Positions 11,135 through 37,230 of a DNA stretch of 41,664 bases are shown piece after piece. The notes beneath the pieces are model-generated. The model was not told the DNA's origin. It worked only from the letters and a program-made list of their open reading frames with translations, and ran no database searches. This stretch comes from a virus. The position numbers and the translations under genes were made by a program. The stretch spans positions 1 through 41,664 of IMG/VR virus record IMGVR_UViG_3300042934_000819. One strand, given 5' to 3'. Numbering within the stretch: position 1 is the stretch's first letter; every line of letters begins with the position of its first letter.

Positions 11135-11890
11135 TTAGCGGAACAATGCCGCCATTAATTTGAGTGTATTGTTTTCCTTAGGTGGTTCTGGTTCCTTTGG
11201 TTGTGGTGGTGGAGTTTTCATCTCCTGTAACAAAGCAACAAGTTGCTTATTCTTTGTCATAATAGATTGATTGATTTCTTTTAAAGCTTCAGCAGCTTTT
11301 GTCATGTCAACTTGCTTATCGGATATTTCATCAGCTAGTCCATATTCTAGGCATTGTTCTGCAGTTAACCATGTTTCCGCATCCATGATAGCCCTTAACT
11401 GTTCTTCATTGAGCTTACCATTTGCCTTTTCAAGATATGCTTGTCTGTTCCCCGCCATTATCGCATCCAAATCATCTGCATTTTTTCTATGAGCCCTAGC
11501 ATTACCTACAGACCAGTTCCACATATCATGTAACATTTGCATAGTTGGTGCTGCCATTATAACCTTGTCACAAGCAGTCAAAAGAAAAGATGCAGCAGAA
11601 GCTGCAAATCCATCTACATATCCGGTTACATATGCTTGATGTCTTTTTAGTTGGCTATGTATACCCATTGCCTCCTTAACATCTCCACCATAACTGTTTA
11701 CATAGAGATTTATAAACTTTGCATCAGGGTATTTCGCTAGTTCCTCTCTAAAGTGTTGAGCAGAGGTTTCGCTAACAATCTTTTCATCTGACCACCAATC
11801 ATAACTATCTGGTTTTATACTTTCATAGATATACATTTCCAAGGTCTCTAGTTGTGCCGATTGTTTTAATTCCCAGATTGTTTTTCTCAA
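11135..11890 (-). CDS. Head maturation protease, ClpP (S14) type
   Basis: A 251-residue protease with ClpP fold. Catalytic Ser98 is in GFAASAAS, His121 in MLHDMWN, and Asp170 in IMDAETW is the likely third residue, nearly the same numbering as ClpP (98/123/172). The NSYGGDVKEAMGI segment is the conserved oxyanion region. It cleaves the capsid N-terminal part during prohead maturation. The start is TTG at 11890 with GGAGGTG upstream and a 4-base overlap with the portal stop. The C-terminal 50 residues include a proline-rich tail (PPPQPKEPEPP), probably a linker. Confidence 0.92.
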   Translation of the reverse strand: MRKTIWELKQSAQLETLEMYIYESIKPDSYDWWSDEKIVSETSAQHFREELAKYPDAKFINLYVNSYGGDVKEAMGIHSQLKRHQAYVTGYVDGFAASAASFLLTACDKVIMAAPTMQMLHDMWNWSVGNARAHRKNADDLDAIMAGNRQAYLEKANGKLNEEQLRAIMDAETWLTAEQCLEYGLADEISDKQVDMTKAAEALKEINQSIMTKNKQLVALLQEMKTPPPQPKEPEPPKENNTLKLMAALFR

Positions 11891-13062
11891 TTCGTATCAC
11901 CTCCTCCCATAGCCGCTAACAAGTCAGCAATTGTTGAATAGTTTTTAGTCATGAAATGTTGCTTTGCCCATGCTTCATCTATTTCTGGTTCACCCACTAG
12001 TTTACGAATATCATTGATGCAGAAGGCTCCTGAAGCAATAAGCTTGTCTATTGCAGTAGATACACTTAGCAGATCAACATGTTTGATTGCCTTAGTATCA
12101 ATCTGAACATAAGTGCCTTGGATGAATGCATCTCTGCCGCTTCGTTTGCGATTAATTTCTTCCTGCAGCATGTCACATAACGGATCAACGCAAAAAGTCA
12201 ACAATTGATCTACTACATCTTTTACACCCTGTACATCGCCTCGAATTAATGCCGGATGCATCCCAAAACCTTTTGCAGTGAAATCTGAAATATCATCAAT
12301 CATTGCCCTAATATCCCTGGTACTTTCACTGGAGTATGTCTTTGACCCTATATCTGTATAGCTCTGGCCTTTACCAAGTGGAATGATGGCATCGGATGTC
12401 TCCATAAAGTTTTTGAATTTTTTACTGATGAGTTCATCAAAGAATATTCTTTCCTGTGAACCTGCAACTGGCAATGTTTCATAGTTAAATGTACCCTTTG
12501 TTCCTCGGGATTTTTTGTAAGACTTCATGCCATGAGCGATTAATTTTGAGTAGCTTTCATACAAGCCCGCTGTTACCCTTCTCATATCACATTCAGACAA
12601 CTTAAAGTAAAGTACCTCAGATTGTACAAATGGTCTATTGAAAGTAAAATCCCCTACTGTAACTTGAGTGAATACATCACTATATAATGCATAAGGTTTT
12701 CTTATAAAACTGTCTGCAACAAGTAGTTGTCCCTTCTGCTCAATGATTAGGCATTCATTTTTACTATAGAGCTGTGCTAACCATTTATGAATAAATCCAC
12801 TGGAGTTTTGGTTTAAATTTGGCTCAACATTCCAGAGATAATATTCAGGTCCCTTTTTTTCTTCGCCATTCACATAGGTTTTAAACTCACATTTACTTAC
12901 GGCATTTGCAATTATATTCACCGCTGACCAAAATGCCATCTCTCTGAAATATACATCTGCCATCAAAACATTGTATTCATCCATATATTCTTGGAGTTCA
13001 TCTCCACTCAGCGGCACTGAGCCTAACCCGAATTTACAACTTAACCACGATATAAGTCCCAA
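11887..13062 (-). CDS. Portal protein (HK97 family)
   Basis: A 391-residue protein of the HK97-type phage portal family, with TTG start at 13062 and AAGGAGGTGAG upstream. Landmarks: ADVYFREMAFWSAVNIIANAVSKCEF near residue 35-60, YLWNVEPNLNQNSSGF near 75, then PLGKGQSYTDIG near 225 and the C-terminal GAFCINDIRKLVGEPEI clip/stem segment. The dodecamer forms the vertex through which DNA is packaged. It lies 12 bases after the terminase gene. Confidence 0.92.
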   Translation of the reverse strand: MGLISWLSCKFGLGSVPLSGDELQEYMDEYNVLMADVYFREMAFWSAVNIIANAVSKCEFKTYVNGEEKKGPEYYLWNVEPNLNQNSSGFIHKWLAQLYSKNECLIIEQKGQLLVADSFIRKPYALYSDVFTQVTVGDFTFNRPFVQSEVLYFKLSECDMRRVTAGLYESYSKLIAHGMKSYKKSRGTKGTFNYETLPVAGSQERIFFDELISKKFKNFMETSDAIIPLGKGQSYTDIGSKTYSSESTRDIRAMIDDISDFTAKGFGMHPALIRGDVQGVKDVVDQLLTFCVDPLCDMLQEEINRKRSGRDAFIQGTYVQIDTKAIKHVDLLSVSTAIDKLIASGAFCINDIRKLVGEPEIDEAWAKQHFMTKNYSTIADLLAAMGGGDTN

Positions 13063-16028: not shown

Positions 16029-16096
16029 GCTATCACTCCTTAGTTTGTATTAGTCTTGTATACGATATTCTACAAACAGAAGTAGATTCCTTCAAT

Positions 16097-16130
16097 AAAA
16101 GGGCTCGACACGGAGGAAGGTGCCAAGCCC
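16097..16130 (-). terminator. Rho-independent terminator after the 33-residue gene
   Basis: On the minus strand GGGCTTGGCAC pairs with GTGTCGAGCCC (11 bp with two G-U pairs, 8-base loop) and is followed by TTTTATT. It lies just downstream of the small gene ending at 16136 and before the late structural genes. Confidence 0.8.
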
Positions 16131-16135
16131 CCAAG

Positions 16136-16237
16136 CTATCTGTTCTTAAAGCATTTGCTAAACGGACAGTAGAAACTTAATCCAGTCCAGGTACTCCAAA
16201 TGCAGCCATAACATTTGTGTTGTTTGTTATCATCCAT
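16136..16237 (-). CDS. 33-residue Cys-rich mini-protein
   Basis: ATG at 16237 with GGAGATGATC upstream. The sequence has a CxxC pair (CYGC) near residue 9 and two more Cys 5 residues apart near 24-29, with aromatic residues between, which suggests a zinc knuckle. It lies between two strong terminators, so it is expressed only by read-through or antitermination. It is too short for most gene finders. Function unknown. Confidence 0.6.
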   Translation of the reverse strand: MDDNKQHKCYGCIWSTWTGLSFYCPFSKCFKNR

Positions 16238-16255
16238 AGGATCATCTCCAATAGA

Positions 16256-16280
16256 AAAAGCCCGCCTATTAAAAGCGGGC
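16256..16280 (-). terminator. Strong rho-independent terminator
   Basis: On the minus strand GCCCGC-TTTTAATAG-GCGGGC followed by TTTTTCT. It lies 75-80 bases downstream of a consensus minus-strand promoter (16342-16370), and ahead of the 33-residue gene and the late genes. It therefore ends both the late-regulator message and the short leader RNA from that promoter. Confidence 0.88.
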
Positions 16281-16341
16281 CTCTTGTTAATTATTTTCCT
16301 GTACAGCTATTATTAAAATTCTATACAGTTTTGACAATACT

Positions 16342-16370
16342 ATTATATAACGCTTATAAATCATTGTAAA
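16342..16370 (-). promoter_or_regulatory. Consensus sigma-A-type promoter, candidate late promoter
   Basis: Minus strand: TTTACA (16370-16365), 17 bases, TATAAT (16347-16342). The predicted start is near 16335, downstream of the late-regulator stop at 16402. The terminator at 16256-16280 would stop this transcript after about 75 bases. A weaker plus-strand TTGACA-18-TATAAA lies over the same AT-rich stretch, and I give it less weight. Confidence 0.6.
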
Positions 16371-16401
16371 ATCATCTTTATTGCAATGATTTGTCAAGTG
16401 C

Positions 16402-16971: not shown

Positions 16972-17273
16972 ACAGTCCTACCTTTCTACCTTATCGGTAA
17001 TTTGTCTATCAATTAATTTATACTTCCTACAACCTTCATCATTCTCAAGGCATTGATTTTACTATGTTTATTATATATATATTTCTTTTTGGTGAAGATT
17101 GGTGAAGGTAAAATATAAAAGTACTATAGGAAAAATAATATAAAAAAGTTATAGAAACTGAATCACCATGTACACCAATTCGAAATTTTTATCCTTCTAA
17201 GTTTTAGTAATCTCAATGCTTTAAAGGCATTGGTGAAGATTGAAAAATATGGTGATGTACATGATGAAGTTCA
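16972..17273. other. AT-rich non-coding region with iteron-like repeats, possible origin
   Basis: No gene is seen on either strand. TTGGTGAAGATTG occurs twice as an exact 13-bp direct repeat (17089-17101 and 17230-17242), with a further partial copy GGTGAAGG at 17101-17108 and related inverted pieces (CACCATGTACACCAATT at 17165-17181; GGTGATGTACATGATG at 17251-17266). Long A/T runs lie between. Its place next to the primase-helicase gene makes a replication origin plausible. Confidence 0.4.
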
Positions 17274-19655
17274 TCACTTTCTCCAAAATGTTGGCTGCAA
17301 TGCATCCTCCATTTCTTCAGGAGTTGCTACCCCAATTCCAAGCCAATTGTATCTTCTGCTCCTGGTTATTTCCTGAATAAAGCCTTTATCTCTCATTGCT
17401 CTGACAAAGCTCTTGGAAGTAAGAGGTTTATAATTCGATTCCTCACACCATCGCTCATATTCACTATACAATTGGTTTCCCGAACACCTCGCCCTCTCCC
17501 CAACCACACAACAAGTAGAAATAAACTCACCAAACATATCCTGATCCTGCTTATATTCATCAGTAGCAGCTAACACACTTGATGGCGGCTTAAGTCCTTG
17601 TTTCTGCCATTCAATGCAGCCTTCCACAGCCCAACGCAATATAGCTGGGTATTCTTTTTTAAGTTTCTCAGGTAGCTTAACATCCTTCTCTTTATCTGAG
17701 ATATATGCATTGAAAGGTACTATCCTGATTCTACGCCATATTCCTATGTCTGTACCCTTGATGATGGGCAAGTGGTTTACTGCCATCCAAATCTTAAATA
17801 CAGGCTTGTACTCAAATGCATCTGCATAAAGTCTCTTGGCCACAATTAAATCACTGCCGGTGAGCTTCTTAACCAGAGCTTCATTCAACCTTACACCATC
17901 ATTAGTCTCAACTGTGGTTACCAATCTTGAGCCCTGCAGCATAGCAACCTCATTTGATGAATTCTGATTGTTTCTACGCTCAGTAAAGAGCTCCATATCA
18001 GCTGTCTTTGAGTAATCACCCAGGATGTCACTCAACACATTAAACAAAGTTGACTTTCCATTACTGCCGGTACCATGGCACATAAAGAAGCATTGTTCTG
18101 CAGTAGATCCAGTGAGACTATAACCGACAGCTCTCTGGATGAAACTGATGAGCTCTTTATCGCCACAAAATATAGAATTCAGGAAAGTTTCCCATACAGG
18201 AGCTTTTCCAGTTGGGTCATATGAAATAGGAGTAATCTTAGTAATCATATCCCCTCTATCATGCTCCCGGAGCTTTCCTGTCTTAAGGTCAATCGTTCCA
18301 TTATCGACGGCTAAAAGCCAATTACTCTTGTCAAATTCTAATGGATCCACAGGCACACCTGTCAAACTTCTTGCTTGTTTTATCATTGCTTCCATCTTTG
18401 CACTGTCACAGCTCTTGCGCGCATGCTTTAATATAGAATCTCTCTTCTCATCCGGAGCGTTGAAAGCCTCATGGATGATTGCTCTTGCTGTCTGTCTTGC
18501 CATCTCAAATATCTCACCTTTGTTATCCATGCGCCATCGGTTTTTATCCCACACAAGCCATGACTTAAAGGGAAAGCAATACCTTAATCCTTGGCCAAAC
18601 TTCGCAATTAATCTTTCTGCATTGCCGATATCATCCAAGGAGAATGCTTTAGGCTTTTCCTTTTCTTTATCCTTCAGCAGATGCTCAAAGCCATCATCAT
18701 AATCTGGAGGGAAATGCTCTTCTTGTACAACTTGCACCGGATTAGATTTCTTTTGAGTTCTTTCCTTTCGAGGTTCATAGACCTTATCACACTTATCAAT
18801 TGCCTCCTGGATGGTGACGCTGCCATAAGTTCCCCCAGGGCGGCGCTCATCCCACTTCTCTCTATACAAACCTGATCTGCAAAATATCCTATTCATTAGA
18901 TCAGCATCATTTCCTGCCCAGAATGCAAGCATATTACATAGTGCCATATCTGCTTCACTCTGGCTGCTGTATAAGCCATTCCAATTACCATTCATTAGGC
19001 TTTCAAATCTGCTACCATTCTTTGAAGCTATAGCCTTTTCAATAATGGTATCATCAGAAAGCCCAAATACAGAATCATCACTTTTATGTACAGTTTCATT
19101 GTTTTTTGATACATTTTTAGATGATCTCTGCACATTTATATACTTTTGGTGTACGATAGCCAGCTGCTCAGTACATTCATGAATTGTGTCTTTGTCATCG
19201 ATAATGTCACCGGTCATGATGAAATATCTGCCCTTATAGTACAACTCATATTTACCATTACGAGCTCTTCCATCAGGAACGGTACCTTTACAAATTACAT
19301 GAACTCCCTTACCGCTGGCACTCACTTCTGTATAACTATCTAGTGTATTAATAATATCCTGCGCCTCAGGCGTAAGCTCTCCAGTCTCCTTATCACGGCA
19401 TCCGTCAATATCAAACCCAGCATAACCGGACCCCTCAAACTGAAAGCCGACACCTAATAAGGTTTTATCTTTTTTCAATCTATCCATTGCCTGTTTGAAG
19501 CTTCCCCAGGTATCAGGTTCATTTGACATTGCATTGTTACCGGTCTTTGGATTCTTAGGAACTTTTGTGGGCTTGCCTTTACGGTCCTCCATGGTCCAAC
19601 AAACCCACCTATTTAACTGCCTTAATTCATTTGGTATGTTTATAAATTGTTGCAT
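17274..19655 (-). CDS. D5/P4-like primase-helicase
   Basis: A 793-residue replication protein. The frame is open to 19712, but the ATG at 19655 has AGGTGAG upstream while the earlier one has none. Residues 1-170 form a bifunctional primase-polymerase domain: FDIDGC at 81-86 supplies the paired metal-binding Asp and SGKGVH near 115 the phosphate-binding residues. A D5_N-like helical domain follows at about 380-500, then an SF3 helicase with Walker A GTGSNGKST at 528-536. The C-terminal 100 residues are a winged-helix DNA-binding part. It primes and unwinds at the phage origin. The iteron-like region lies directly after it. Confidence 0.92.
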   Translation of the reverse strand: MQQFINIPNELRQLNRWVCWTMEDRKGKPTKVPKNPKTGNNAMSNEPDTWGSFKQAMDRLKKDKTLLGVGFQFEGSGYAGFDIDGCRDKETGELTPEAQDIINTLDSYTEVSASGKGVHVICKGTVPDGRARNGKYELYYKGRYFIMTGDIIDDKDTIHECTEQLAIVHQKYINVQRSSKNVSKNNETVHKSDDSVFGLSDDTIIEKAIASKNGSRFESLMNGNWNGLYSSQSEADMALCNMLAFWAGNDADLMNRIFCRSGLYREKWDERRPGGTYGSVTIQEAIDKCDKVYEPRKERTQKKSNPVQVVQEEHFPPDYDDGFEHLLKDKEKEKPKAFSLDDIGNAERLIAKFGQGLRYCFPFKSWLVWDKNRWRMDNKGEIFEMARQTARAIIHEAFNAPDEKRDSILKHARKSCDSAKMEAMIKQARSLTGVPVDPLEFDKSNWLLAVDNGTIDLKTGKLREHDRGDMITKITPISYDPTGKAPVWETFLNSIFCGDKELISFIQRAVGYSLTGSTAEQCFFMCHGTGSNGKSTLFNVLSDILGDYSKTADMELFTERRNNQNSSNEVAMLQGSRLVTTVETNDGVRLNEALVKKLTGSDLIVAKRLYADAFEYKPVFKIWMAVNHLPIIKGTDIGIWRRIRIVPFNAYISDKEKDVKLPEKLKKEYPAILRWAVEGCIEWQKQGLKPPSSVLAATDEYKQDQDMFGEFISTCCVVGERARCSGNQLYSEYERWCEESNYKPLTSKSFVRAMRDKGFIQEITRSRRYNWLGIGVATPEEMEDALQPTFWRK

Positions 19656-19712
19656 TCTTTGTTTCTCACCTGCCTTTGCGCTTATAGTTAAAAAATATTT
19701 TTTTGGAATCAT

Positions 19713-19740
19713 TTAACAATTTAATATAGTTTGATATTAT
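19713..19740 (+). promoter_or_regulatory. Promoter of the small hydrophobic peptide gene
   Basis: TTAACA (19713-19718), 16 bases, TATTAT (19735-19740): one mismatch to consensus in each box. The predicted start near 19747 coincides with the 5' arm of the inverted repeat at 19749-19761. It points right, against the flanking minus-strand genes. Confidence 0.5.
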
Positions 19741-19748
19741 AAATATAG

Positions 19749-19946
19749 GATGGTCTCGTGGTAGATTCGCAAAAGGAGTCTGATAAATTGAAAAACCTTG
19801 AGTTTGTTAGTATCATACTAAGTATTATAGCTAACACCTTAATCATAATGACTACACTTAAGTAATAACCTAATTATTAAGTTTACTCGAGGGGTTTTTA
19901 TATTCTTTTTTTTTACACTAGAGGGGTGATTCGCCACGAGATCATC
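19749..19946. repeat. 13-bp inverted repeat bracketing a small-peptide transcription unit
   Basis: GATGGTCTCGTGG at 19749-19761 and CCACGAGATCATC at 19934-19946 are complementary over 13 bases with one G-U pair. The heptamer GATTCGC also lies next to each arm as a direct repeat. They bracket the 25-codon gene and its leader. In an RNA starting at about 19747 the arms would join the 5' and 3' ends. No target-site duplication is visible, so a mobile element is less likely. Confidence 0.6.
19788..19865 (+). CDS. 25-residue hydrophobic peptide, type I toxin-like
   Basis: Starts with TTG at 19788, nine bases after AAGGAG. The peptide has a short polar start (MKNLE), a continuous hydrophobic span of about 18 residues (FVSIILSIIANTLIIM), and ends TTLK: size and shape of membrane-acting type I toxins or a tiny membrane regulator. 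It has its own promoter and lies on the strand opposite to all neighbouring genes. Its stop lies in a 9-bp bulged hairpin (19857-19881), followed by T-rich DNA to 19914. A TATAAT facing left at 19824-19829 could start an antisense RNA, but its -35 is poor. The family is not recognised; the toxin role is inference. Confidence 0.5.
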   Translation: MKNLEFVSIILSIIANTLIIMTTLK

Positions 19947-19972
19947 TGTCCCATAATTTTTGTAATGTACAA

Positions 19973-20320
19973 CTATTCTTCATACAATGAAATATCTAAG
20001 CACTCAGTAATTTCTTTTACATTATGGCTATTCTCATCAAAATCCGTATATTGTATTGAAATATATACATTCTTAAAAATGTCTTGTACCTCACAGAAAA
20101 GAGTATTAACTGATTCAATGTCGTAAACGAGCGGTACAATTAAAACTAAATCGTCAATTGGTGCTTCAACATAGTCCCATCCATGAACATCATGTTTTCT
20201 TAGTTGTTTCGCAACAAATTTTTCATTTGCCTTGAACTGTTCTAATGTCACACACACCTTGTTTTCTCCAAGCTGAACTCCTATAGTAAAATCCTCTACT
20301 TCTCTACCGTTATATTTCAA
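19973..20320 (-). CDS. Hypothetical early protein
   Basis: A 115-residue acidic protein from a TTG start at 20320 with GAGAGGAAAA upstream; no ATG start fits. Alternating beta and helical segments, with a DDLVLIVPLVYDIESVN core near residues 57-72. No motif or membrane span, and no family recognised. It is the last gene of the replication run before the plus-strand peptide unit, about 50 bases after the 89-residue gene. Confidence 0.65.
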   Translation of the reverse strand: MKYNGREVEDFTIGVQLGENKVCVTLEQFKANEKFVAKQLRKHDVHGWDYVEAPIDDLVLIVPLVYDIESVNTLFCEVQDIFKNVYISIQYTDFDENSHNVKEITECLDISLYEE

Positions 20321-20369
20321 ATTTTCCTCTCTTTCCGCAACTCATGTTGCACAAAATATTTATACATCG

Positions 20370-20639
20370 CTACTGAAACTTCAAATACTTCTTTACATCA
20401 GATTCATTGACCCCCATGGCCACTAATACATTAACCGCTGCAGTAATAGTTCTCATGAATTCAACTGCTAATGGTTCAAACTTATCTTTTTCTGCTTGAG
20501 GAGTATCTTTATTTTCAAGATATTTAAACATGTTATTTAGTTTAGTAGTCATCTTGTCGAAGTCTAAAAGAGCTTCTTTCTTTTGCTCCTCTGTAGCAGT
20601 TATCACTAAGGTAAATTTATCTTTGTTATAGCTCAGCAT
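20370..20639 (-). CDS. Hypothetical helical early protein
   Basis: An 89-residue, wholly helical, Lys/Glu-rich protein; the ATG at 20639 follows GAGGGGGAAG and begins immediately after the helicase stop, so it is in the same operon and probably co-translated. The LVITATEEQKKEALLDFDKM segment and the C-terminal AAVNVLVAMGVNESDVKKYLKF helix pair suggest a small protein-binding partner. No family recognised. Confidence 0.7.
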   Translation of the reverse strand: MLSYNKDKFTLVITATEEQKKEALLDFDKMTTKLNNMFKYLENKDTPQAEKDKFEPLAVEFMRTITAAVNVLVAMGVNESDVKKYLKFQ

Positions 20640-20640
20640 A

Positions 20641-22044
20641 TTACTTCCCCCTCACTTTTGGATTATTGACGATTTCACAACCTAAAGCTTTATAAACCTT
20701 TAACCTGTCATATCCCCATGTCTTAAGCTGTGGAGTAAGCTTATCTATTATGTCATATACTACTGGTTGCTGCTTTCCTTCCTCAGGCCTCATGATTCTG
20801 CCCACAGCTTGCTGGATGCTTGTTTTGTCCCTTTTAGGTGTTGCCAGTACCAATTTATTCAGCCTCGGGATATCAAGTCCAAGCTTGGCCAACTGATAAG
20901 TAGCAAACAGATAATGATATTGTCCTGAGCGCATATCCTGCATTATCAATTCACGTTCCTTCTTTGGAGTGGTACCGCAAACAAATGCTGCTAGCCTTCC
21001 TTGCTTTTCTATGAATGACTTAAGCATCCTTAAGTGATCCAAGTTATCTCCCAACACTAGGCAATAATCTGTGTTATCAACATGATTGATTAATGTGCTC
21101 TTGAGTATTGCATTACGTCCTGCATCATCCTTCATACATGCTGTCATCACTGCTACATTAAGCATCTCATCCTCTGGCGGCTCATAGAAGAAGTCTGTTG
21201 GTATGAATTCAACCTTTGGTTTCATTGTCATGAGCCTTGGATCACTTTGTTCTACTTCATAAAGCTTAGGTCCTAAAATGTGAAACATGCTCTCAATCAG
21301 TCCATCACTTCTATGCTCACTAGCTGTCAGACCAAAACGATAATATGCGGGAAATTGAGAAATAACACCGTTGAACATCCTCATTTTATTGCCATCACCC
21401 TTGAACACTAGATGGCATTCATCCACAATGATGCAACCAAACTTCTTAACAACTTCTGACAAATCTCTGTTGGCCAAAGTCTGAACTGTAGCAAATGTCA
21501 TGTGACTTCCTATGCTGCACTTATCTCCCTGGATGATTCCAATTTGAGATCCGGATATTCCTAAGAACTTCTTTGCACTCTCCATACTCTGATTCAACAA
21601 GTCTATGGTGTGGGTTATCCATAGGGTAGGTTGCTGCAGCTCGTATACTATACCCATAGCACTTGATGTTTTTCCAGCTCCACACGGCATTATGAAAACT
21701 CCGTTGCCAATTGATTCTCTTGCTTGTACTGGAAATGGTTCTTGGTAATCTCTCAGCTTTGGCTTTTGAGGGTAATAAACAGGAGCTAACTGAACCCTAC
21801 AACTCTGATATGTGCTCATATCTGTCAAATCATATAGCCTATTCATGTACCCCCTGGGTAATATCAGCGTGCCATCTTCTTCACTGTAAAACTTGAGTAT
21901 CTGCTCAGTTCCCCATAATGGCAGTCCCATCTGTTTCTTCTTTATGTACAAAGGATTTTTCATAGTAAGTTCTTTCTTTATGGCCAATAGGATGTGCGCC
22001 GGCACATCCCTCAACCTAATCATGCAATCTATTGTTATTTGCAT
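20641..22044 (-). CDS. SF2 DEAD/DEAH-type helicase
   Basis: A 467-residue helicase. N-terminal DNA-binding part about 1-95; QEPFPVQ (Q-like motif) near 101; Walker A CGAGKT at 121-126; DECH box at about 206-209; GLTASEHR (motif III-like) near 240; and motif VI QQAVGRIMRP near 415. This is the UvsW/ERCC3-like group common in Firmicute phage replication modules, which remodel forks or D-loops. AGGAGGTAG precedes the ATG. It is encoded next to SSB and upstream of the primase-helicase. Confidence 0.92.
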   Translation of the reverse strand: MQITIDCMIRLRDVPAHILLAIKKELTMKNPLYIKKKQMGLPLWGTEQILKFYSEEDGTLILPRGYMNRLYDLTDMSTYQSCRVQLAPVYYPQKPKLRDYQEPFPVQARESIGNGVFIMPCGAGKTSSAMGIVYELQQPTLWITHTIDLLNQSMESAKKFLGISGSQIGIIQGDKCSIGSHMTFATVQTLANRDLSEVVKKFGCIIVDECHLVFKGDGNKMRMFNGVISQFPAYYRFGLTASEHRSDGLIESMFHILGPKLYEVEQSDPRLMTMKPKVEFIPTDFFYEPPEDEMLNVAVMTACMKDDAGRNAILKSTLINHVDNTDYCLVLGDNLDHLRMLKSFIEKQGRLAAFVCGTTPKKERELIMQDMRSGQYHYLFATYQLAKLGLDIPRLNKLVLATPKRDKTSIQQAVGRIMRPEEGKQQPVVYDIIDKLTPQLKTWGYDRLKVYKALGCEIVNNPKVRGK

Positions 22045-22054
22045 TGACTACCTC

Positions 22055-22234
22055 CTAATAAATCTCTACTTTTATTTCTGCTTCATCAAGTTCTCGTTGA
22101 GCAGCTTCCCAAACTTCAAAATCACATGTTAAAGCATTAGGGCAAGTCTTGCATCCTTGATCATCAGGAAGTGCTTTTACTTGAAGTTCACAGAACGTCT
22201 TAAGTAATTCTAAAATTTTTATTACATTATCCAT
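22055..22234 (-). CDS. Small Cys-containing early protein
   Basis: A 59-residue protein, unannotated in long-ORF searches. ATG at 22234 has a textbook AGGAGG five bases upstream. The CKTCPN...TC arrangement (Cys near 28, 31 and 37, plus one at 15) suggests a metal site, followed by a helical acidic C-terminus. It sits tightly between SSB and the helicase. Function unknown. Confidence 0.7.
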   Translation of the reverse strand: MDNVIKILELLKTFCELQVKALPDDQGCKTCPNALTCDFEVWEAAQRELDEAEIKVEIY

Positions 22235-22243
22235 AACTGCCTC

Positions 22244-22660
22244 CTAAAATGGAAGGTCATCTTCTGATTCATCTACAGTAGTGAATCCACTTTCTTTACC
22301 AGAATTGCCCGCTGTAGATGAGGATGAAGCCTGTCCATTTTCTTTTGCCTTATCAAGATAATGAACTTCATCTGCTATAACTTCTGTGGCAAAATGTCTC
22401 TTGCCATCCTGATCGTCCCAACTTCTTGTTTGGATTCTTCCAGATACTGCAACTAGTCTACCTTTTCCAATATATTTACCTGCGTTCTCTGCAGGCTTTC
22501 CAAATACTACTATTGGTATGAAATCGGCATCTGGTTGTCCTTCTACCTTGAACATTCTATTTACTGCTATAGTGAATTTTGCTACTGCTGTATTATTATT
22601 TGCTGTATATCTAACCTCTGGGTCTTTGGTTAATCTACCTACAAGTGCGACTTTATTCAT
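22244..22660 (-). CDS. ssb: Single-stranded DNA-binding protein
   Basis: A 138-residue SSB: the OB-fold begins MNKVALVGRLTKDPEVRYT and ends near residue 105; the Ser/Gly-rich linker leads to the acidic tail ending DDLPF, the partner-binding tip of bacterial SSBs. It coats single-stranded DNA for the helicase, RecT and the primase encoded around it. GGAGGGAT precedes the ATG. Confidence 0.97.
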   Translation of the reverse strand: MNKVALVGRLTKDPEVRYTANNNTAVAKFTIAVNRMFKVEGQPDADFIPIVVFGKPAENAGKYIGKGRLVAVSGRIQTRSWDDQDGKRHFATEVIADEVHYLDKAKENGQASSSSTAGNSGKESGFTTVDESEDDLPF

Positions 22661-22663
22661 CTA

Positions 22664-22819
22664 TTAATATCCCTCCACTACTTTATATTCTGCTACTGCA
22701 ACAAGCTTGCCGGGACTCATTTTCTCAGCACTCTTGTTGTCAAAAGGTATTAAATATATCTCTGCTCTCATTTTCTTTTTCTTCTGCCCTTGTCTGGCAT
22801 TAGATTTTTTTCTTGGCAT
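22664..22819 (-). CDS. Small basic protein
   Basis: A 51-residue protein with a very basic N-terminus (MPRKKSNARQGQKKKKMRAE) followed by a beta-like segment (IYLIPF...LVAVAEYKVVEGY). GTGAGG is upstream of the ATG at 22819. It lies between the RecU-like nuclease and SSB with short spacing on both sides. The basic tail suggests nucleic-acid binding. Family not recognised. Confidence 0.65.
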   Translation of the reverse strand: MPRKKSNARQGQKKKKMRAEIYLIPFDNKSAEKMSPGKLVAVAEYKVVEGY

Positions 22820-22830
22820 ATATATCAACC

Positions 22831-23289
22831 TCACTTAATAATTTTGAATCTCTCTAAATTCCAACCAGCACCTTTACGCTCAAGCTCTTCAAACTCTAGC
22901 ATCTTTATGCTGCCTCGAACTCCACTGCAGACAGCTTCTCTGACATCGACCCAAGGTATAAGGAAAGCTCTCTTTATATCACCATCTATCCATATCCCGA
23001 TAATGAATGCATTGTCAGCTCCAACCTTCTCTACAAAAGAATTTAATCCCCTACGCTCATTCTTGGTAATGCTCTTTGTGTTGTATCCAATTGTGGGCTC
23101 CTTACGCACCTTGATCTCTAGACCATATCCTCCTCCTGGAGGAATAACTAGCTTATCAAATACGGTACCGAATCCAGCATTAATAAATTTGTGATTCCAC
23201 AGCTTGGAGGATTTGAGGGAAGAAGTTATTAACTCCTCCCCCTTTGCGCCCCTCTCAACCTTATCTTTTTGAGTCATCTTATCTGTCAT
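22831..23289 (-). CDS. RecU-like Holliday-junction resolvase / nuclease
   Basis: A 152-residue nuclease-like protein. The GAKGEELITSSLKSS start, the GTVFDKLVIPPGGGYGLEIKVRK segment (Asp, then the E-x-K of a PD-(D/E)xK active site near residues 45-60) and the following SITKNERRGLNSF match the RecU / penicillin-binding-protein-related recombinase group. It would cut recombination or replication intermediates. It lies in the recombination module between SSB and PhageMetallopep; GAGGGAT precedes the ATG. Confidence 0.8.
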   Translation of the reverse strand: MTDKMTQKDKVERGAKGEELITSSLKSSKLWNHKFINAGFGTVFDKLVIPPGGGYGLEIKVRKEPTIGYNTKSITKNERRGLNSFVEKVGADNAFIIGIWIDGDIKRAFLIPWVDVREAVCSGVRGSIKMLEFEELERKGAGWNLERFKIIK

Positions 23290-23292
23290 TCT

Positions 23293-23793
23293 TTATCCCT
23301 CAGTGCCTGTCTCAGGGAACATTGACAACTGTTCATATTCAGAATTTGCTTTAACTAGATTCTGCAGTCCAGTTGTCCAAAGTCCATGTCGTTGAATTAT
23401 GCCAACGAAATCCTCAACTGAATGAAGCTGAATATACCATTTCGGATTTCCTTGTTTGTCATCCTCACCTCTAGCACAGTGCATTAACTCATGATCAAGG
23501 AGTGCTTGCCTTAACTCTGGTTTATTTGCAAACCATATATCACGATTAATGGTTACAACAAAATCATATCCAGTAAGATGCTTCCATTTTGCAGCAACCT
23601 TCTCTGCTTTACCGTAAATAATTCTGCCTTTCAGTTCCCACTTGCCAGTACGAAATAAATATTTAATTCTTGCTTCAGCTAAATGACCATGTATATTATC
23701 AATAAGTCGTGCAGCTAACTCTTGTACCTCTGGCGCATCTTTCAATTCTGCTTTTTCTTTTGGTGGTTTAACTCCCATATTTCTTCTTGCCAT
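23293..23793 (-). CDS. Putative phage metallopeptidase (PhageMetallopep)
   Basis: A 166-residue protein with a clear HExxH zinc-protease motif, HELMH, at 101-105, followed by CARGEDDKQGN and a second conserved HSVEDF near 128, as in the PhageMetallopep family (PF18894). N-terminal helix APEVQELAARLIDNIHGHL and the VAAKWKHLTGYDFVVTINRDIW core are also typical. These proteins occur in the replication modules of many Gram-positive phages; the substrate is unknown. A possible GGGAG lies about 14 bases before the ATG. Confidence 0.85.
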   Translation of the reverse strand: MARRNMGVKPPKEKAELKDAPEVQELAARLIDNIHGHLAEARIKYLFRTGKWELKGRIIYGKAEKVAAKWKHLTGYDFVVTINRDIWFANKPELRQALLDHELMHCARGEDDKQGNPKWYIQLHSVEDFVGIIQRHGLWTTGLQNLVKANSEYEQLSMFPETGTEG

Positions 23794-23958
23794 TTATTTT
23801 CTTTCTCCCTTCTTAAACACTTTTGGTTTATTTGATTGTATATGTATAAAATGGACTTCATCTGGTGTATTTTTTACATATAGCCAGTTCTCTGGATTAA
23901 GTCCTATACTTTTGAGAAACTTCTTCATGTCGAGGGTTAGTCTCTTTCCATGCTTCAT
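23794..23958 (-). CDS. DUF6906-like small protein
   Basis: A 54-residue protein; GGGAGGACAGGCT directly before the ATG at 23958 decides the start. MKHGKRLTL...LKSIGLNPENWLYVKNTPDEVHFIH is the pattern of the DUF6906 family, small proteins widespread in Firmicute phages and conjugative elements. Function unknown. It starts inside the end of the MBL hydrolase region (about 14 bases from its stop). Confidence 0.78.
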   Translation of the reverse strand: MKHGKRLTLDMKKFLKSIGLNPENWLYVKNTPDEVHFIHIQSNKPKVFKKGERK

Positions 23959-23971
23959 AGCCTGTCCTCCC

Positions 23972-24700
23972 TTAAAATGGTTGCATCTCAAAATCGATAT
24001 GCTTGCCTGCAGTGGCAACTTGCGTTTCTATCTTTGTCTGCTCTGTTATCTCCCTGATCATCCTATTTGCATCTGAATTATTGTTTGATAAGTGAAGCAG
24101 TACAATCTTTCTGACACTTGCCATATCATTTGCAGCTAGAAAATCTTTAACATTCTCAAGACTGAAATGACTTTCCTTAAGCCGATTCCTGATGACGCTA
24201 TCCTCTATCAAGTCAGCAATGTGGTTGCACTCAATCATGATGTAATGCAGACCGCTGAATTTATATTTGATGTAGTATGTATCAGTTGCAAACAGTATCT
24301 TCTCTTTAGTCTTTTTATCTTGAATAATGTAGCCCACAGGCTCAGCACAGTCATGCTGCACTGAGAAAGGAAGTATAATAAACTGCCCTATCTCAAACTG
24401 CATGAAGCCGTCCCCCTTATACCGGTGAGTTATTAATCTGTGACTTTTCAACCTCAAAGCATCCTTAGTTCCTTTGCTCATATATACATCGATGCTTTTG
24501 TTGATTAAATCCGGGACTGCTTTGCTGTGGTCTTGATGTTCATGAGTTATAATGCACCCAACTACATCACTAAAGTTAAAATCTACAGCCTTTTGAATAT
24601 CCCTATAGCTGACACCACACTCTATTATTAGCTTTTGACCTTCAGCAGTAAGGATGTAACAATTACCCTTACTGCTGCTGCCAATTACCTGGAGCTCCAT
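23972..24700 (-). CDS. MBL-fold metallo-hydrolase (YycJ/WalJ-like)
   Basis: A 242-residue metallo-beta-lactamase-fold protein: the HEHQDH metal motif at 53-58, preceded by IIECGVSYRDIQKAV, then QHDCAEPVGY near 114 and ATDTYYIKY with the bridging Asp near 138, and LLHLSNNNSDANR near 203 with a later His. The family includes the YycJ-type exonucleases encoded beside RecT in phages, so a DNA-processing nuclease is a reasonable inference. GAGGTTTCTA precedes the ATG, which overlaps the RecT stop. Confidence 0.88.
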   Translation of the reverse strand: MELQVIGSSSKGNCYILTAEGQKLIIECGVSYRDIQKAVDFNFSDVVGCIITHEHQDHSKAVPDLINKSIDVYMSKGTKDALRLKSHRLITHRYKGDGFMQFEIGQFIILPFSVQHDCAEPVGYIIQDKKTKEKILFATDTYYIKYKFSGLHYIMIECNHIADLIEDSVIRNRLKESHFSLENVKDFLAANDMASVRKIVLLHLSNNNSDANRMIREITEQTKIETQVATAGKHIDFEMQPF

Positions 24701-25608
24701 TAGAAACCTCTCTCATCTTCATCATCTGAAGTTGGAGCAGGATCAGAAACTAGGGCTGCGTCTTGAGAAGGTGGATCAATAATTTCATCAGGATCTACTG
24801 TGAACACTGGTATAATATCAATTATCTCTCTATTTGCATTGTCAGCTATTTCTTCTGCAACCTGTGCATCCTGCAGCTCATCAGAAACCTTCTTAGCAAA
24901 TTGAACTATAATATTGCGATCATCTGAGGTATTAATAATTGTCTTGGCTGCCTTATTGATTACAGTACGTTTGCACATCTCAACAGGGAATTTTCCGTGA
25001 GTGCTATCTTCTTTAACTGCCCCGTTCTCAAGTACCGGTTTAACAATGCTTTGCTTCCAGCTCTGCTTGATATCATCGATCGTCATAATTACAGCTTCTT
25101 CACGTCCATCCCTATATGTGATTACTGCATATGCCGCTACAATTTCATTCTTCTTGATATTCCCGAGCTCTTGCTCATGTTGGGTGACTATAGTCCTGCC
25201 TTTTTTCTTTTCATACTTGAAGGTATCGCCTTTGTAAACAACGTCAGCATAGATGTCTTCAAGTTCCTCGTTTACAGTTTTAGCAACGTGTACAGCTCCA
25301 AAATAGGATCTCATCAATGTGAGCTGGTTGCCATATGCCACAAAATAACATTGTTTCTTATCTGGATTAAGTCCCTGAACAGCCATGCTCAACAATGAGT
25401 TTGCGATGCTGTCCTTTGTACAGCTCTCCAATACAGGCCGTTGGGCTCTATCCTTTGTATTCTGCAGTACCAGCCAAGCACTCTTCAGAGCATTCTGCGG
25501 AACATAATTTGCAGGAAACTGCAGCTCTCCACTCTGGCTTAATGCCTTAATCTTTGCTTCAACTAAATCTATGGTGTCTTTTTTAACTACTAGCTTGTTA
25601 TCACTCAT
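24700..25608 (-). CDS. recT: RecT single-strand annealing protein
   Basis: A 302-residue RecT-family recombinase. Conserved blocks are SIANSLLSMAVQGLNPDKKQCYFVAYG (about 68-93), LMRSYFGAVHVAK (about 98-110) and the ADVVYKGDTF block near 125; the C-terminal 60 residues are acidic and probably bind SSB or partner proteins. It anneals complementary single strands in phage recombination. TTGGAGGGATAAAC precedes the ATG. It is encoded between the SbcC-like ATPase and the MBL hydrolase, which together may do the work of a RecE-type exonuclease, since no RecE is present. Confidence 0.95.
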   Translation of the reverse strand: MSDNKLVVKKDTIDLVEAKIKALSQSGELQFPANYVPQNALKSAWLVLQNTKDRAQRPVLESCTKDSIANSLLSMAVQGLNPDKKQCYFVAYGNQLTLMRSYFGAVHVAKTVNEELEDIYADVVYKGDTFKYEKKKGRTIVTQHEQELGNIKKNEIVAAYAVITYRDGREEAVIMTIDDIKQSWKQSIVKPVLENGAVKEDSTHGKFPVEMCKRTVINKAAKTIINTSDDRNIIVQFAKKVSDELQDAQVAEEIADNANREIIDIIPVFTVDPDEIIDPPSQDAALVSDPAPTSDDEDERGF

Positions 25609-31652: not shown

Positions 31653-31895
31653 CTACTTTCTTAGTTCAGTGATACAATCGCTGCATATGTTCTTGCCCTT
31701 GTGGAATTTCATGTTCTTAGCTTGTCCACAGAATATACAGGATGGTTCGTACTTTCTGAGTATTATTTTGCCACCATCATCAGTGAAAATCTCAAGCGGA
31801 TCTCCTTCCTCGATTGCATGTGTTCTCCTAAGTTCTTTTGGTATTACTACCCTTCCTAGCTCATCTACCCTGCGCACTATGCCTGTTGATTTCAT
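31653..31895 (-). CDS. AbrB-family transcription regulator with zinc ribbon
   Basis: An 80-residue protein. Residues 1-48 are an AbrB/SpoVT swapped-hairpin DNA-binding domain (GIVRRVDELGRVVIPKELRR, then GDPLEIF and KIILRKY). The last 30 residues hold CIFC and CSDC, a small zinc ribbon seen on AbrB homologues of Clostridia. It likely regulates phage early or host genes. AGAGGAGGAATAC precedes the ATG. Confidence 0.92.
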   Translation of the reverse strand: MKSTGIVRRVDELGRVVIPKELRRTHAIEEGDPLEIFTDDGGKIILRKYEPSCIFCGQAKNMKFHKGKNICSDCITELRK

Positions 31896-32890: not shown

Positions 32891-32919
32891 TTGACAGAGA
32901 AAATAAAATGTTTTAAAAT
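32891..32919 (+). promoter_or_regulatory. Repressor maintenance promoter
   Basis: TTGACA (32891-32896), 17 bases, TAAAAT (32914-32919): perfect -35 and a 5/6 -10. Operator 4 overlaps the -35 and operator 5 begins at the end of the -10, consistent with negative autoregulation. The predicted start near 32926 rules out translation from upstream in-frame codons and supports the ATG at 32951. Confidence 0.8.
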
Positions 32920-32950
32920 TTCTTTAACAGAGAAATTAAGGAGGTGTACA

Positions 32951-33556
32951 ATGTTAGGCGATAATATTAAATTGATTAGAAAATCGAAAAACTTAACTTT
33001 AAGTCAAGTAGCTAATAAAAGCAAAATTTCTGTTGGATATTTAAGTGACATAGAAAAAAACAATAAAACAAATCCAACAATGGATACTTTAGAAAAAATA
33101 GCTGATGCTTTAGGCGTTTCAATAAATGAATTTTTAACAAGCAATTCTTTTTCAATAGAGTTATTAGCTGCTTTGCAAAATGCTTACGCGGATCCAATTA
33201 CTGGCGCTATAAACTCTGAACGCTTTATTAGTAAATTGTCAAATGAGTTGAACATGGAAGATATGGAATTTTATAAAGTTATCAATAATAAATCACTAGA
33301 GTTACCTATAGAACTGCAAAAGATATTATTAGATCACTTAAAAGCAATAGATATGAGCATTTATAATAAATTCATGAGTGAATATTCGGAGCAAAATTCA
33401 AATATTGGCGAGACTCCTTCACAATATACCGCTGCTGCTCATATGGACAATATGTCAGATTACGAAGATGGTCTTTCTGATGATGAAAGAATTGCTGTAA
33501 GGGCATTTATTGAAACGTATAGAAAGCAAAAATTATCTAGTGAGAAGGGAGAATAG
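32951..33556 (+). CDS. CI-type phage repressor (XRE HTH)
   Basis: A 201-residue protein. ATG 32951 follows AAGGAGG by six bases and lies downstream of the mapped promoter. Residues 1-60 are an XRE helix-turn-helix (LIRKSKNLTLSQVANKSKISVGYLSDIEKN). The rest is helical, with no S24/LexA-type Ser-Lys self-cleavage domain (no conserved AxG or Lys motif seen), so RecA-dependent autolysis is not expected; the ImmA peptidase next door would cut it instead. The C-terminal part (DGLSDDERIAVRAFIETYR) is a short helix typical of such ImmR-like repressors. Confidence 0.9.
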   Translation: MLGDNIKLIRKSKNLTLSQVANKSKISVGYLSDIEKNNKTNPTMDTLEKIADALGVSINEFLTSNSFSIELLAALQNAYADPITGAINSERFISKLSNELNMEDMEFYKVINNKSLELPIELQKILLDHLKAIDMSIYNKFMSEYSEQNSNIGETPSQYTAAAHMDNMSDYEDGLSDDERIAVRAFIETYRKQKLSSEKGE

Positions 33557-33559
33557 CTT

Positions 33560-34069
33560 ATGGCAATAAGACTTTCAAAGCTAGAGTTACTACTAGATGA
33601 AGCCAGGTTATACAGAATTGAAGTTAAGAATGCAACACTCCCAAAGCGGATTAAGGGGCTATACTTTAGTGATAATAATCTCCCTCCGGTAATTGCCCTT
33701 AACAAGCAATGTATTGAAGGTATGTCTGAAGAATTATGTATAATGGCTGAGGAGATTGGCCACCACTTCACCTCTGCTGGAGATTTATTATCTAATTCTA
33801 TTGATAAAGCAATTATTGTAAAACAAGAGCAAATAGCCCGTAAATGGGCTGTAAAAAGAATAGCATCCTTAACTGATATAATAAATGCTTATGAGAATGG
33901 CGCTCAGTCGTTATATGAAATGGCTGAATATATGGACATTACTGAAGATTTTCTTTGTAGGGCTATTGAGTTATATAGAAGAAAGCATGGGCTTATGACA
34001 GAGGTTGGGGATAAATACATAGTGTACTTTGAACCCTTTGGTGTTCTAAAAAAAATAAGCGTTATTTGA
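33560..34069 (+). CDS. ImmA/IrrE-type metallopeptidase (anti-repressor)
   Basis: A 169-residue ImmA/IrrE-type protein three bases after the repressor stop. The zinc motif is EEIGHH at 64-69: the first His of HExxH is Glu, a variant often seen in phage ImmA proteins, with the second His kept. ImmA cleaves the cognate repressor on DNA damage or quorum signals, turning on the lytic genes. AAGGGAG precedes the ATG. A terminator follows the stop. Confidence 0.87.
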   Translation: MAIRLSKLELLLDEARLYRIEVKNATLPKRIKGLYFSDNNLPPVIALNKQCIEGMSEELCIMAEEIGHHFTSAGDLLSNSIDKAIIVKQEQIARKWAVKRIASLTDIINAYENGAQSLYEMAEYMDITEDFLCRAIELYRRKHGLMTEVGDKYIVYFEPFGVLKKISVI

Positions 34070-34091
34070 AATCCCACTCACATGGGATTTT
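34069..34091 (+). terminator. Rho-independent terminator after immA
   Basis: AAATCCCA-CTCACA-TGGGATTT (perfect 8-bp stem, six-base loop) followed by T. It starts at the ImmA stop and separates the repressor operon from the integrase gene. Confidence 0.8.
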
Positions 34092-34128
34092 GTATTATAT
34101 TAAACTAATAATGTAGAGGATGATCATC

Positions 34129-35715
34129 ATGCCATACTGCTTATATTTAAGGAAATCAAGAGCTGATATTGAAGCTGAATCTAAAGGGGAAGAAGAAACC
34201 CTTGCAAGACATGAGAAAGCACTTCTTGAGCTTGCTAAAAGACAGAAGTTTAATATCACTCATATATATAGAGAAGTTGTATCCGGAGAAACTATTGCAG
34301 CCAGACCGATAATGCAGCAGCTCCTCACTGAGGTCGAGCAGGGCATATGGGAAGGCGTGCTTGTTATGGAAGTCGAGCGTCTAGCTCGTGGAGATACTAT
34401 GGACCAAGGACTGGTTGCGCAAACATTTAAGTACTCCAACACAAAAATAATAACTCCTATGAAGACCTATGATCCCAATAATGAGTATGATGAAGAGTAC
34501 TTTGAGTTTGGCCTTTTTATGTCACGCCGTGAATACAAAACAATAAACAGACGCTTGCAGCGTGGACGTATAGCTTCTGTTAAAGAAGGCAAGTACTTAG
34601 GCAACAAACCTCCTTATGGGTACATTCGGAAGAAGCTTGAAAATCAGAAGGGTTATACGCTTGAAATCGTCCCTGAGCAAGCCGAAATCGTTAAGTTGGT
34701 GTATGAACTATACACCACAGGAGAACTGCAGGCAAACGGAAGCACACAGCGCTTAGGGGTATCTTTGATAGTGCGTAAATTAAATGATTTAAGAATACCA
34801 CCTTTAAATAGTGATGCATGGGTTATGTCCACAATTCAAGGCATGCTGCGTAATCCAGTTTATATTGGTAAAATAAGATGGAATGCGCGTCCTGCAGTTA
34901 AAAAGATGGTAGATGGAGAAATGAAGAGAGAACGGCCAAGAGCCGATGCTGTAGATTGGATCCTTGTTGAAGGATTACATGCAGCAATCATTGACGAGGC
35001 TATTTTTAATCTCGCCCAAGAATACATGTCAAATAATAAACCTCTACCTGCACCAAAGGACAGACAAATTAAAAACCCTCTTGCTGGTTTAATTATATGC
35101 GGCATGTGTGGGCGTAGAATGGTGCGCCGTCCATATGCTAGAAATTACCCTGATGGTTTGATGTGTCCTGTTACTTCATGCTCCAATGTGAGTTCTCAGC
35201 TGCAAATAGTTGAAAAACGATTACTGGAAGCACTAGAGCAATGGCTTCAGGAATATAAAATGAATTGGAATATTTCTGAAGAAAATAAACCTAAACAAAA
35301 TATACAAGTAGAAATAAATAAAAAAGCCGTCAAGAAGCTTGATGATGAAATTAAGAATCTCGAAAAGCAGATAGATAATATTCATGATCTCCTGGAGCAA
35401 GGTGTATACTCCACAGATACATTCCTTGAGCGTTCAAAGGTCATAAATGAGAAAATTAATACTGCTCGTAAAGGTAAAGAAGATATGTTAAAAGACTTAC
35501 ACTGGCAAATATCAAGAGAGGAAAACTTGCAGGTCTTTATTCCTAAGGTTGAAAGAGCCATGGAGCTTTATAAAGAAACCGATGATATAGCTCTTAAGAA
35601 TGAGTTGTTGAAAGGAATTATAGAAAAGGCTGTATATACCAAGACCCAGGGCTCCCGATGGCATGGTACGCTTGATGACTTTGAACTTTCTCTGCTGCCA
35701 AAGGTTCCTAAATAA
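34129..35715 (+). CDS. int: Large serine integrase
   Basis: A 528-residue serine recombinase. AGAGG nine bases upstream supports ATG 34129 over 34120. Resolvase-type N-terminal domain with catalytic Ser10 in YLRKSRAD and the conserved ERLARGD at 83-89; recombinase domain with LGNKPPYGYIRKK near 160-172; zinc ribbon with CGMC near 323 and further Cys near 345-351; and a C-terminal coiled coil (about 400-470). It inserts and excises the phage at attP x attB. The candidate attP lies 9 bases after its stop, the usual place. Confidence 0.96.
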   Translation: MPYCLYLRKSRADIEAESKGEEETLARHEKALLELAKRQKFNITHIYREVVSGETIAARPIMQQLLTEVEQGIWEGVLVMEVERLARGDTMDQGLVAQTFKYSNTKIITPMKTYDPNNEYDEEYFEFGLFMSRREYKTINRRLQRGRIASVKEGKYLGNKPPYGYIRKKLENQKGYTLEIVPEQAEIVKLVYELYTTGELQANGSTQRLGVSLIVRKLNDLRIPPLNSDAWVMSTIQGMLRNPVYIGKIRWNARPAVKKMVDGEMKRERPRADAVDWILVEGLHAAIIDEAIFNLAQEYMSNNKPLPAPKDRQIKNPLAGLIICGMCGRRMVRRPYARNYPDGLMCPVTSCSNVSSQLQIVEKRLLEALEQWLQEYKMNWNISEENKPKQNIQVEINKKAVKKLDDEIKNLEKQIDNIHDLLEQGVYSTDTFLERSKVINEKINTARKGKEDMLKDLHWQISREENLQVFIPKVERAMELYKETDDIALKNELLKGIIEKAVYTKTQGSRWHGTLDDFELSLLPKVPK

Positions 35716-36431: not shown

Positions 36432-36476
36432 TAAAAAAAAGATAAACAAAATACCTTCTGCACAATTGCTTATCTT
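36432..36476 (-). terminator. Terminator after the PIN toxin gene
   Basis: Minus strand: AAGATAAGCAA (36476-36466) pairs with TTGTTTATCTT (36449-36439), 11 bp with one G-U, followed by eight T. It overlaps the PIN stop codon and separates the toxin-antitoxin unit from the LexA-box gene. Confidence 0.82.
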
Positions 36477-37009: not shown

Positions 37010-37230
37010 TCTTTCCTTGCATCCTTTATCGCTTCATTAATATCGTCTTGACTAAAATTAAAATATGAGTTTAATACCTTCCCGGCAGCTCTTAAGTTCG
37101 CGATAACCTCATCTTCTTTAACTTGACACTCTTTCATAGGAAGAATTTTTGTTTTTCCTAATGCTAATACATCCATCTTAGAACCCCCTAACTTTTTTTT
37201 GCTGCTAAGTTGGACAACTTTCTTACCCAT
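37000..37230 (-). CDS. Antitoxin partner of the PIN toxin
   Basis: A 76-residue protein directly upstream of, and overlapping, the PIN toxin. N-terminal basic part (KKVVQLSSKKKLGGSK) followed by the conserved VKEDEVIANLRAAGKVL and a charged C-terminal helix (DINEAIKDARKEWK) expected to occlude the PIN active site. GGAGGG eight bases before the ATG. The nearby TCGA-CATATA-TCGA repeat (37270-37283) could be its operator, but this is only suggested. Confidence 0.8.
   Translation of the reverse strand: MGKKVVQLSSKKKLGGSKMDVLALGKTKILPMKECQVKEDEVIANLRAAGKVLNSYFNFSQDDINEAIKDARKEWK

What the first reader, a model, noticed from the sequence alone, without database searches (positions are those of the whole stretch)
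19713..19950. Plus-strand 25-residue hydrophobic peptide with a self-pairing mRNA: possible new type I toxin-like element
Promoter (TTAACA-16-TATTAT), ribosome binding site, a 25-codon frame with one membrane span, and complementary ends of the predicted message (19749-19761 with 19934-19946, 13 bp). The 5' end would start right at the 5' arm. 5'-3' pairing that hides translation is a hallmark of hok-, fst- and bsrG-type toxin mRNAs. It lies between replication genes but on the opposite strand. I do not recognise the peptide family.
Basis: partly seen in the sequence, partly recalled or inferred. Interest (0 to 1): 0.65.

Follow-up and report, generated by a model that had tools for sequence, protein, structure and literature searches.

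The report
Orphan phage self-closing toxin-like mRNA
A temperate phage carries, backwards inside its replication genes, a tiny gene for a 25-residue membrane peptide whose message is predicted to fold shut much as known "type I" bacterial toxin messages do, although the peptide resembles no known toxin and no dedicated antidote RNA could be found.

Summary
Between a 115-aa gene and the primase gene, on the opposite strand, lie an extended -10 promoter, a 15-bp pairing of the message's 5' end with its 3' region (19748-19762/19933-19947), a Shine-Dalgarno site in its own 6-bp hairpin, and a TTG-started 25-aa one-span peptide. The arm pair is the strongest long-range helix on either strand. A scan for ribosome site + short hydrophobic ORF + 5'/3' helix finds only this place in the window; composition-matched sequence gives 0.001 per window. 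The same scan recovers most PF16935 (BsrG-class) toxin loci fetched from Clostridia, which share the layout: closing helix about 40 nt before the start and 50-100 nt past the stop, SD hairpin beside it. So it is built like a BsrG-class type I toxin message. It is not a member of that family: the peptide scores below most of its own shuffles, and no antisense promoter of the family type was found. No homologue turned up in phages, IMG/VR patterns or about 400 Clostridia genomes, so covariation could not be tested. Likely a lysogeny-strand toxin-like peptide, silenced by its own fold and perhaps by antisense read-through of the lytic operon. Correction: the arms do not cover the ribosome site; a separate hairpin does.

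The parts
19713..19740 (+). sigma-A type promoter TTAACA-16-TATTAT with extended -10 (TG at 19732-19733); predicted start of transcription about 19747
   Evidence: 10/12 matches plus TG; start inferred from spacing, not mapped
19748..19762 (+). 5' arm of the closing helix (GGATGGTCTCGTGGT), at the predicted 5' end of the message
   Evidence: strongest long-range helix of the window
19763..19781 (+). SD hairpin AGATTC-(GCAAAAG)-GAGTCT, stacked directly on the closing helix; its 3' strand and loop hold the Shine-Dalgarno sequence
   Evidence: 6 bp, 7-nt loop, 0 nt from the arm; SD region mean paired probability about 0.77 in the full-length RNA
19773..19778 (+). Shine-Dalgarno AAGGAG, 9 nt before the start codon
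   Evidence: sequence; (large genes of this phage use TTG with similar SD and spacing, e.g. 11887-13062)
19788..19865 (+). ORF, TTG start, 25 aa MKNLEFVSIILSIIANTLIIMTTLK, one predicted membrane span
   Evidence: hydropathy 2.28; no family match
19796..19803 (+). early codons CCTTGAGT, paired with 19885-19892
   Evidence: minimum-energy fold
19885..19892 (+). 3' UTR segment ACTCGAGG that pairs with the early codons
   Evidence: minimum-energy fold
19933..19947 (+). 3' arm of the closing helix (GCCACGAGATCATCT), about 80 nt after the stop codon
19658..19972 (-). untranslated stretch of the minus-strand replication operon between the 115-aa gene (stop at 19973) and the primase start (about 19657); read-through here would be antisense to the whole element
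   Evidence: (start position by comparison with L002), 37, 82: no minus-strand terminator and no minus-strand promoter of 10/12 in 17000-24800

Best explanation
The element is a stand-alone transcription unit on the lysogeny strand of a temperate Firmicutes-type phage that makes a short membrane peptide from an mRNA built like those of BsrG/TxpA (Hol_Tox)-class type I toxins. Proposed steps: the promoter at 19713-19740 drives an mRNA starting at about 19747 (inferred); while it is made, a 6-bp hairpin masks the SD (predicted); when the 3' arm emerges, the 5' end is locked to it by 15 bp, with the early codons paired to the 3' UTR, leaving a stable, poorly translated store of message (predicted); loss of the 3' arm by trimming or cleavage, or failure to close, lets some peptide be made, which inserts into the membrane and slows or kills the cell (inferred by analogy). 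When the lytic operon on the minus strand runs, its read-through transcript is complementary to the whole message and would silence it through duplex formation (inferred). The likely benefit is prophage maintenance or exclusion of competing phages (inferred).
For: Shown by sequence and computation: promoter, SD, TTG ORF, arms; fold z -3.45 on this strand versus -1.74 on the other; unique in the window and 0.001 per simulated window; start-anchored helix 0 of 20,000. Same layout in known toxin loci: 5'/3' helix in most Hol_Tox loci and in bsrG, at about -40 to -50 and mostly +50 to +100, with a local SD hairpin beside the closing helix in 21 of 23 comparators (22 loci of the PF16935/BsrG class plus L038). 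A background of 784 kb of other phage and clostridial DNA gave one hit, L038, itself toxin-like. Literature: txpA, bsrE and bsrG hide their RBS in 4-5 GC pairs, and yonT and fst use a rare GUG start (PMC6562991); aapA3 combines SD-masking hairpins with a 5'-3' interaction relieved by 3' trimming (PMC6733600); type I toxins stabilise a C. difficile prophage (PMC7699646). No minus-strand terminator across the element.
Against: No homologue of peptide or RNA anywhere searched, so conservation is untested. The closest phage, L002 (84% primase identity), lacks it at this place. No dedicated antisense promoter and no + strand terminator. The peptide has only a single C-terminal lysine, less charge than most type I toxins. 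The closing helix changes the predicted SD masking little: about 0.69-0.80 paired in most prefixes with or without it. Toxicity and expression are wholly inferred.
Confidence: 0.6

Rival explanations
1. A non-coding antisense RNA. The + strand transcript is an antisense regulator of the minus-strand replication operon: in the lysogen it pairs with the mRNA upstream of the primase and directs its cleavage; the ORF is incidental.
For: It lies exactly opposite the untranslated stretch just upstream of the primase, inside an apparently unbroken operon. The strong fold would stabilise an sRNA.
Against: A correctly spaced SD plus a one-span ORF is expected in only 0.1% of such gaps. The combination with SD hairpin and closing helix matches toxin mRNAs. 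The transcript starts about 90 nt away from the primase start and would not cover its ribosome site.
Confidence: 0.15
2. A real small membrane peptide, but not a toxin: for example a superinfection-exclusion, immunity or lysis-modulating factor expressed from the prophage, with the RNA structure serving mRNA stability.
For: Own promoter on the lysogeny strand inside a lytic operon is a moron-like layout. Weakly charged peptide and no evident antisense gene.
Against: Layered masking of the SD is needed only if unscheduled translation is harmful; the layout is shared with toxin mRNAs.
Confidence: 0.15
3. A decayed or mobile-element remnant: the inverted arms are terminal repeats of a small insertion and the ORF is chance.
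For: 13-15 bp inverted ends about 200 bp apart; the element is absent from the relative L002.
Against: No target-site duplication at the arm ends (sequence), no second copy of the arms in the window. The promoter lies outside the repeats and is spaced to start at the 5' arm; joint chance is very low.
Confidence: 0.05
4. Chance: an AT-rich gap with a fortuitous ORF and fortuitous complementarity.
For: A helix this strong somewhere in the window is expected about 0.3 times per strand. No homologues.
Against: Joint rate about 0.001 per window or lower, and the start-anchored helix never arises in 20,000 draws.
Confidence: 0.05

Closest known systems
BsrG/SR4 of Bacillus phage SPbeta (TxpA/BsrG family, Pfam PF16935 Hol_Tox)
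   Same: Short one-span peptide; 5' arm about 40 nt before the start paired to the 3' UTR; SD in a local hairpin next to the closing helix; temperate phage.
   Different: Peptide unrelated by profile. TTG start. bsrG has a 10/12 antisense promoter at stop+180; this element has none above 8/12. Longer closing helix here (15 versus 10-11 bp) and weaker overall fold.
Clostridial Hol_Tox loci
   Same: Closest in RNA layout: L010 has a 13-14 bp closing helix, 1-nt gap, 6-bp SD hairpin, 7-nt loop; this element has 15 bp, 0-nt gap, 6 bp, 7-nt loop.
   Different: Their peptides share the motif M-x-x-[YF]-[EQ]-x-L-x-L-M-I; this one lacks it. Several carry an antisense promoter at stop+82 to +98.
aapA/IsoA of Helicobacter pylori and hok/Sok of plasmid R1
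   Same: Principle: 5'-3' pairing of the full-length mRNA with short SD-masking hairpins during transcription (PMC6733600).
   Different: There the SD itself pairs with the 3' end (aapA3); here the arms lie upstream of the SD. Unrelated peptides; antisense RNAs proven there.
C. difficile prophage type I toxins (CD0956.2, CD2907.1 and others)
   Same: Small hydrophobic peptides in prophages of Clostridia, linked to prophage maintenance (PMC7699646, PMC6563280).
   Different: 34-59 aa with a charged, lysine-rich C-terminus and mapped antisense RNAs.

Membership tests
TxpA/BsrG family (PF16935 Hol_Tox) | Peptide matches the family profile | tested here: not met
   No match in Pfam at E up to 10. 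Against a profile built from 17 family peptides it scores -0.1 bits; 822 of 988 of its own shuffles score at least as high.
TxpA/BsrG family (PF16935 Hol_Tox) | Long helix between the 5' UTR and the 3' UTR of the toxin mRNA | tested here: met
   15 bp at -40 and about +80; family loci mostly 11-16 bp at -37 to -55 and +51 to +101.
TxpA/BsrG family (PF16935 Hol_Tox) | SD sequestered in a short local hairpin | tested here: met
   6 bp, 7-nt loop beside the closing helix, as in L010, L033, L025.
Type I toxin-antitoxin system | Small hydrophobic one-span peptide with its own promoter and RBS | tested here: met
Type I toxin-antitoxin system | Antisense RNA antitoxin with its own promoter | tested here: inconclusive
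   Best minus-strand site only 8/12 at stop+184 and none of 9/12 nearby, while several family controls show stronger sites. Consensus scans cannot exclude other promoters; operon read-through could serve instead.
Type I toxin-antitoxin system | Peptide is toxic on expression and the RNA antidote neutralises it | not testable with these tools
   Needs induction in a laboratory host.
Type I toxin-antitoxin system | Arms covary in relatives that keep the peptide | not testable with these tools
   No relative found.

The most novel reading that the evidence does not exclude
A new family of phage type I-like toxins that has the closed mRNA of the BsrG class but no antidote gene of its own: the lytic replication operon, transcribed through the element on the other strand, is the antitoxin. 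The toxin message is then live only while the lytic genes are silent, coupling a membrane toxin to the lysis/lysogeny state.
Probability: 0.2. Interest if true: 0.75.

Novelty: new variant of a known kind. Interest (0 to 1): 0.52.

Why it matters
If translated and toxic, it would be a toxin peptide family with no sequence relative that nevertheless uses the same message architecture as a widespread family. That suggests that the RNA layout (closing helix plus SD hairpin plus short membrane ORF) can be used to find type I toxins that peptide searches miss, and raises the question of whether a lytic operon can act as an antitoxin. Both are directly testable.

Tried and rejected
Homology: blastn and tblastn against 50,697 phage records, none; the BsrG control peptide, at 38 aa, was found easily. 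IMG/VR scans: the N-terminal and arm patterns gave only unrelated ORFs or DNA without a 3' arm, stricter core patterns none, the neighbouring 115-aa protein no relative. Peptide search in 399 clostridial genomes: six weak hits, E 0.14 or worse, in open frames of 52-611 aa. DNA hits in the family of G001 were short AT-rich matches; the three checked that overlapped the ORF start gave unrelated frames. Rfam: no family. Membership in Hol_Tox rejected. Mobile-element reading rejected for lack of a duplication or second copy. A GTG start at 19758 (35 aa) was judged unlikely: it lies inside the 5' arm with no good SD. A first scan for helices timed out, and an early version missed the arms through a G-U filter. 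The host could not be named.

Full report
Setting. The window is a virus record of 41,664 bases with a repressor-like gene, a second gene and a serine recombinase on the + strand (32891-35715) and structural and replication genes on the - strand: a temperate phage of Firmicutes type; the host was not identified. The replication block on the - strand (SSB, helicase, an 89-aa and a 115-aa protein, a D5-type primase) is interrupted by a 315-bp gap, 19658-19972, one of the three largest in the window. Comparison with the nearest relative, L002 (84% primase identity), places the primase start at about 19657.

The observation. In this gap, on the + strand, are a promoter with an extended -10 (19713-19740), the only such site of 10/12 in 7.8 kb; a 5' arm at 19748-19762; AAGGAG at 19773-19778; a TTG ORF of 25 codons; and a 3' arm at 19933-19947. 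TTG with this kind of ribosome site is used by large genes of the same phage, for example 11887-13062 and 39772-41529. The RNA from 19747 to 19962 folds at -55.2 kcal/mol, z -3.45; the opposite strand has z -1.74. One arm position is G-U on the + strand and would be A-C on the - strand, a small further sign that the + strand RNA matters.

Chance. The arm pair is the strongest long-range helix on either strand, though a helix of that score somewhere is expected about 0.3 times per strand. Anchored at the predicted start, it never arises in 20,000 draws. An SD with a hydrophobic smORF in such a gap has p about 0.001. The full combination occurs 0.001 times per simulated window at a lower helix threshold and never at the observed one in 4,090 windows. 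Criteria were drawn up after seeing the element, so I treat these as support, not as exact probabilities.

Comparison with known toxin messages. Loci of the Hol_Tox family (PF16935, which includes BsrG) were fetched from clostridial genomes and bsrG from phage SPBc2 as a control. Most show a helix of 11-16 bp between a segment about 40-50 nt before the start and one usually 50-100 nt past the stop, with different arm sequences in different loci but complementarity kept. Folding them gives a closing helix with a local hairpin near or over the SD beside it in 21 of 23 comparators; L010, for example, has 13-14 bp, a gap of 1 nt, a 6-bp hairpin and a 7-nt loop. The element has 15 bp, no gap, 6 bp and 7 nt. 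A scan for this layout found most Hol_Tox loci, the element, and one further candidate in 784 kb of other DNA.

Not a member. The peptide has no match in Pfam, NCBIfam, PHROGs or PADLOC, and against a Hol_Tox profile it scores lower than most of its own shuffles. Several Hol_Tox loci show a strong antisense promoter at stop+82 to +98; the element's best is 8/12 at stop+184. On present evidence it works like the TxpA/BsrG family but is not filed under it.

Mechanism. The SD hairpin is predicted from the shortest transcripts on (SD about 0.7 paired in most prefixes), the early codons pair with 19885-19892 once about 155 nt are made, and the 5' arm goes from about half to 0.98 paired when 19948 is reached. 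So the arms do not themselves hide the SD; they lock the 5' end and stack on the SD hairpin. In B. subtilis, 4-5 GC pairs over the RBS are reported to suffice to block efficient ribosome binding (PMC6562991), and in aapA3 SD-masking hairpins act before a 5'-3' interaction forms (PMC6733600). By analogy the full-length message would be a silent store activated by trimming. No terminator or strong promoter was seen on the - strand between 24800 and 17000, so the lytic operon should be read through the element and would act as a complete antisense; this is inference. Prophage maintenance is a documented benefit of such peptides in Clostridia (PMC7699646).

Limits. No homologue was found, so covariation and purifying selection could not be tested; the relative L002 has other DNA at this place. 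Whether the RNA exists, where it ends, whether it is translated and whether the peptide is toxic are open. The 25-aa query is short, and tblastn and HMMER can miss diverged relatives; the collections may omit records near the window.

Verdict. A real, well-formed element, very likely a type I toxin-like message with a new peptide and without an evident antidote gene.

Noticed in passing
L004-L033 (Hol_Tox loci), e.g. L006, L008, L012, L014, L020, L026, L027: Clostridial Hol_Tox toxin loci keep 5'/3' complementarity through quite different arm sequences (helix scores 31-43 in many), and several carry an extended -10 antisense promoter at stop+82 to +98. The layout is distinctive enough to be scanned for without any peptide profile.
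   Followed up: partly
L038 9141, minus strand: IMG/VR contig with a 26-aa peptide MTTFEKIVATCTVVQTVVTVLNYFFQ, strong SD hairpin and a 12-bp 5'/3' helix; no Pfam match. A further possible toxin-like element found by layout alone.
   Followed up: partly
window 16030-16400, minus strand: Strongly folding stretch (z -4.2) with a terminator-like hairpin GCCCGC..GCGGGC-TTTTT and a small ORF beginning MDDNKQHKCYGCIW, a cysteine-containing peptide; probably near the end of the early operon.
   Followed up: no
window 36470-37230, minus strand: PIN-domain protein (PF13470) overlapping a 76-aa gene just upstream: a possible type II toxin-antitoxin pair.
   Followed up: no
window 31653-31895, minus strand: 80-aa protein with a MazE/AbrB-type DNA-binding domain (PF04014) in the early region.
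   Followed up: no
window 39151-39759, plus strand: Secreted-looking protein with a copper amine oxidase N-terminal domain (PF07833), on the opposite strand next to the tail and lysis genes: a possible lysogenic-conversion gene.
   Followed up: no
window 19909-19917: Run of nine T between ORF and 3' arm; it could pause or end the + strand transcript before the 3' arm, giving a short message without the closing helix. Not explained.
   Followed up: no
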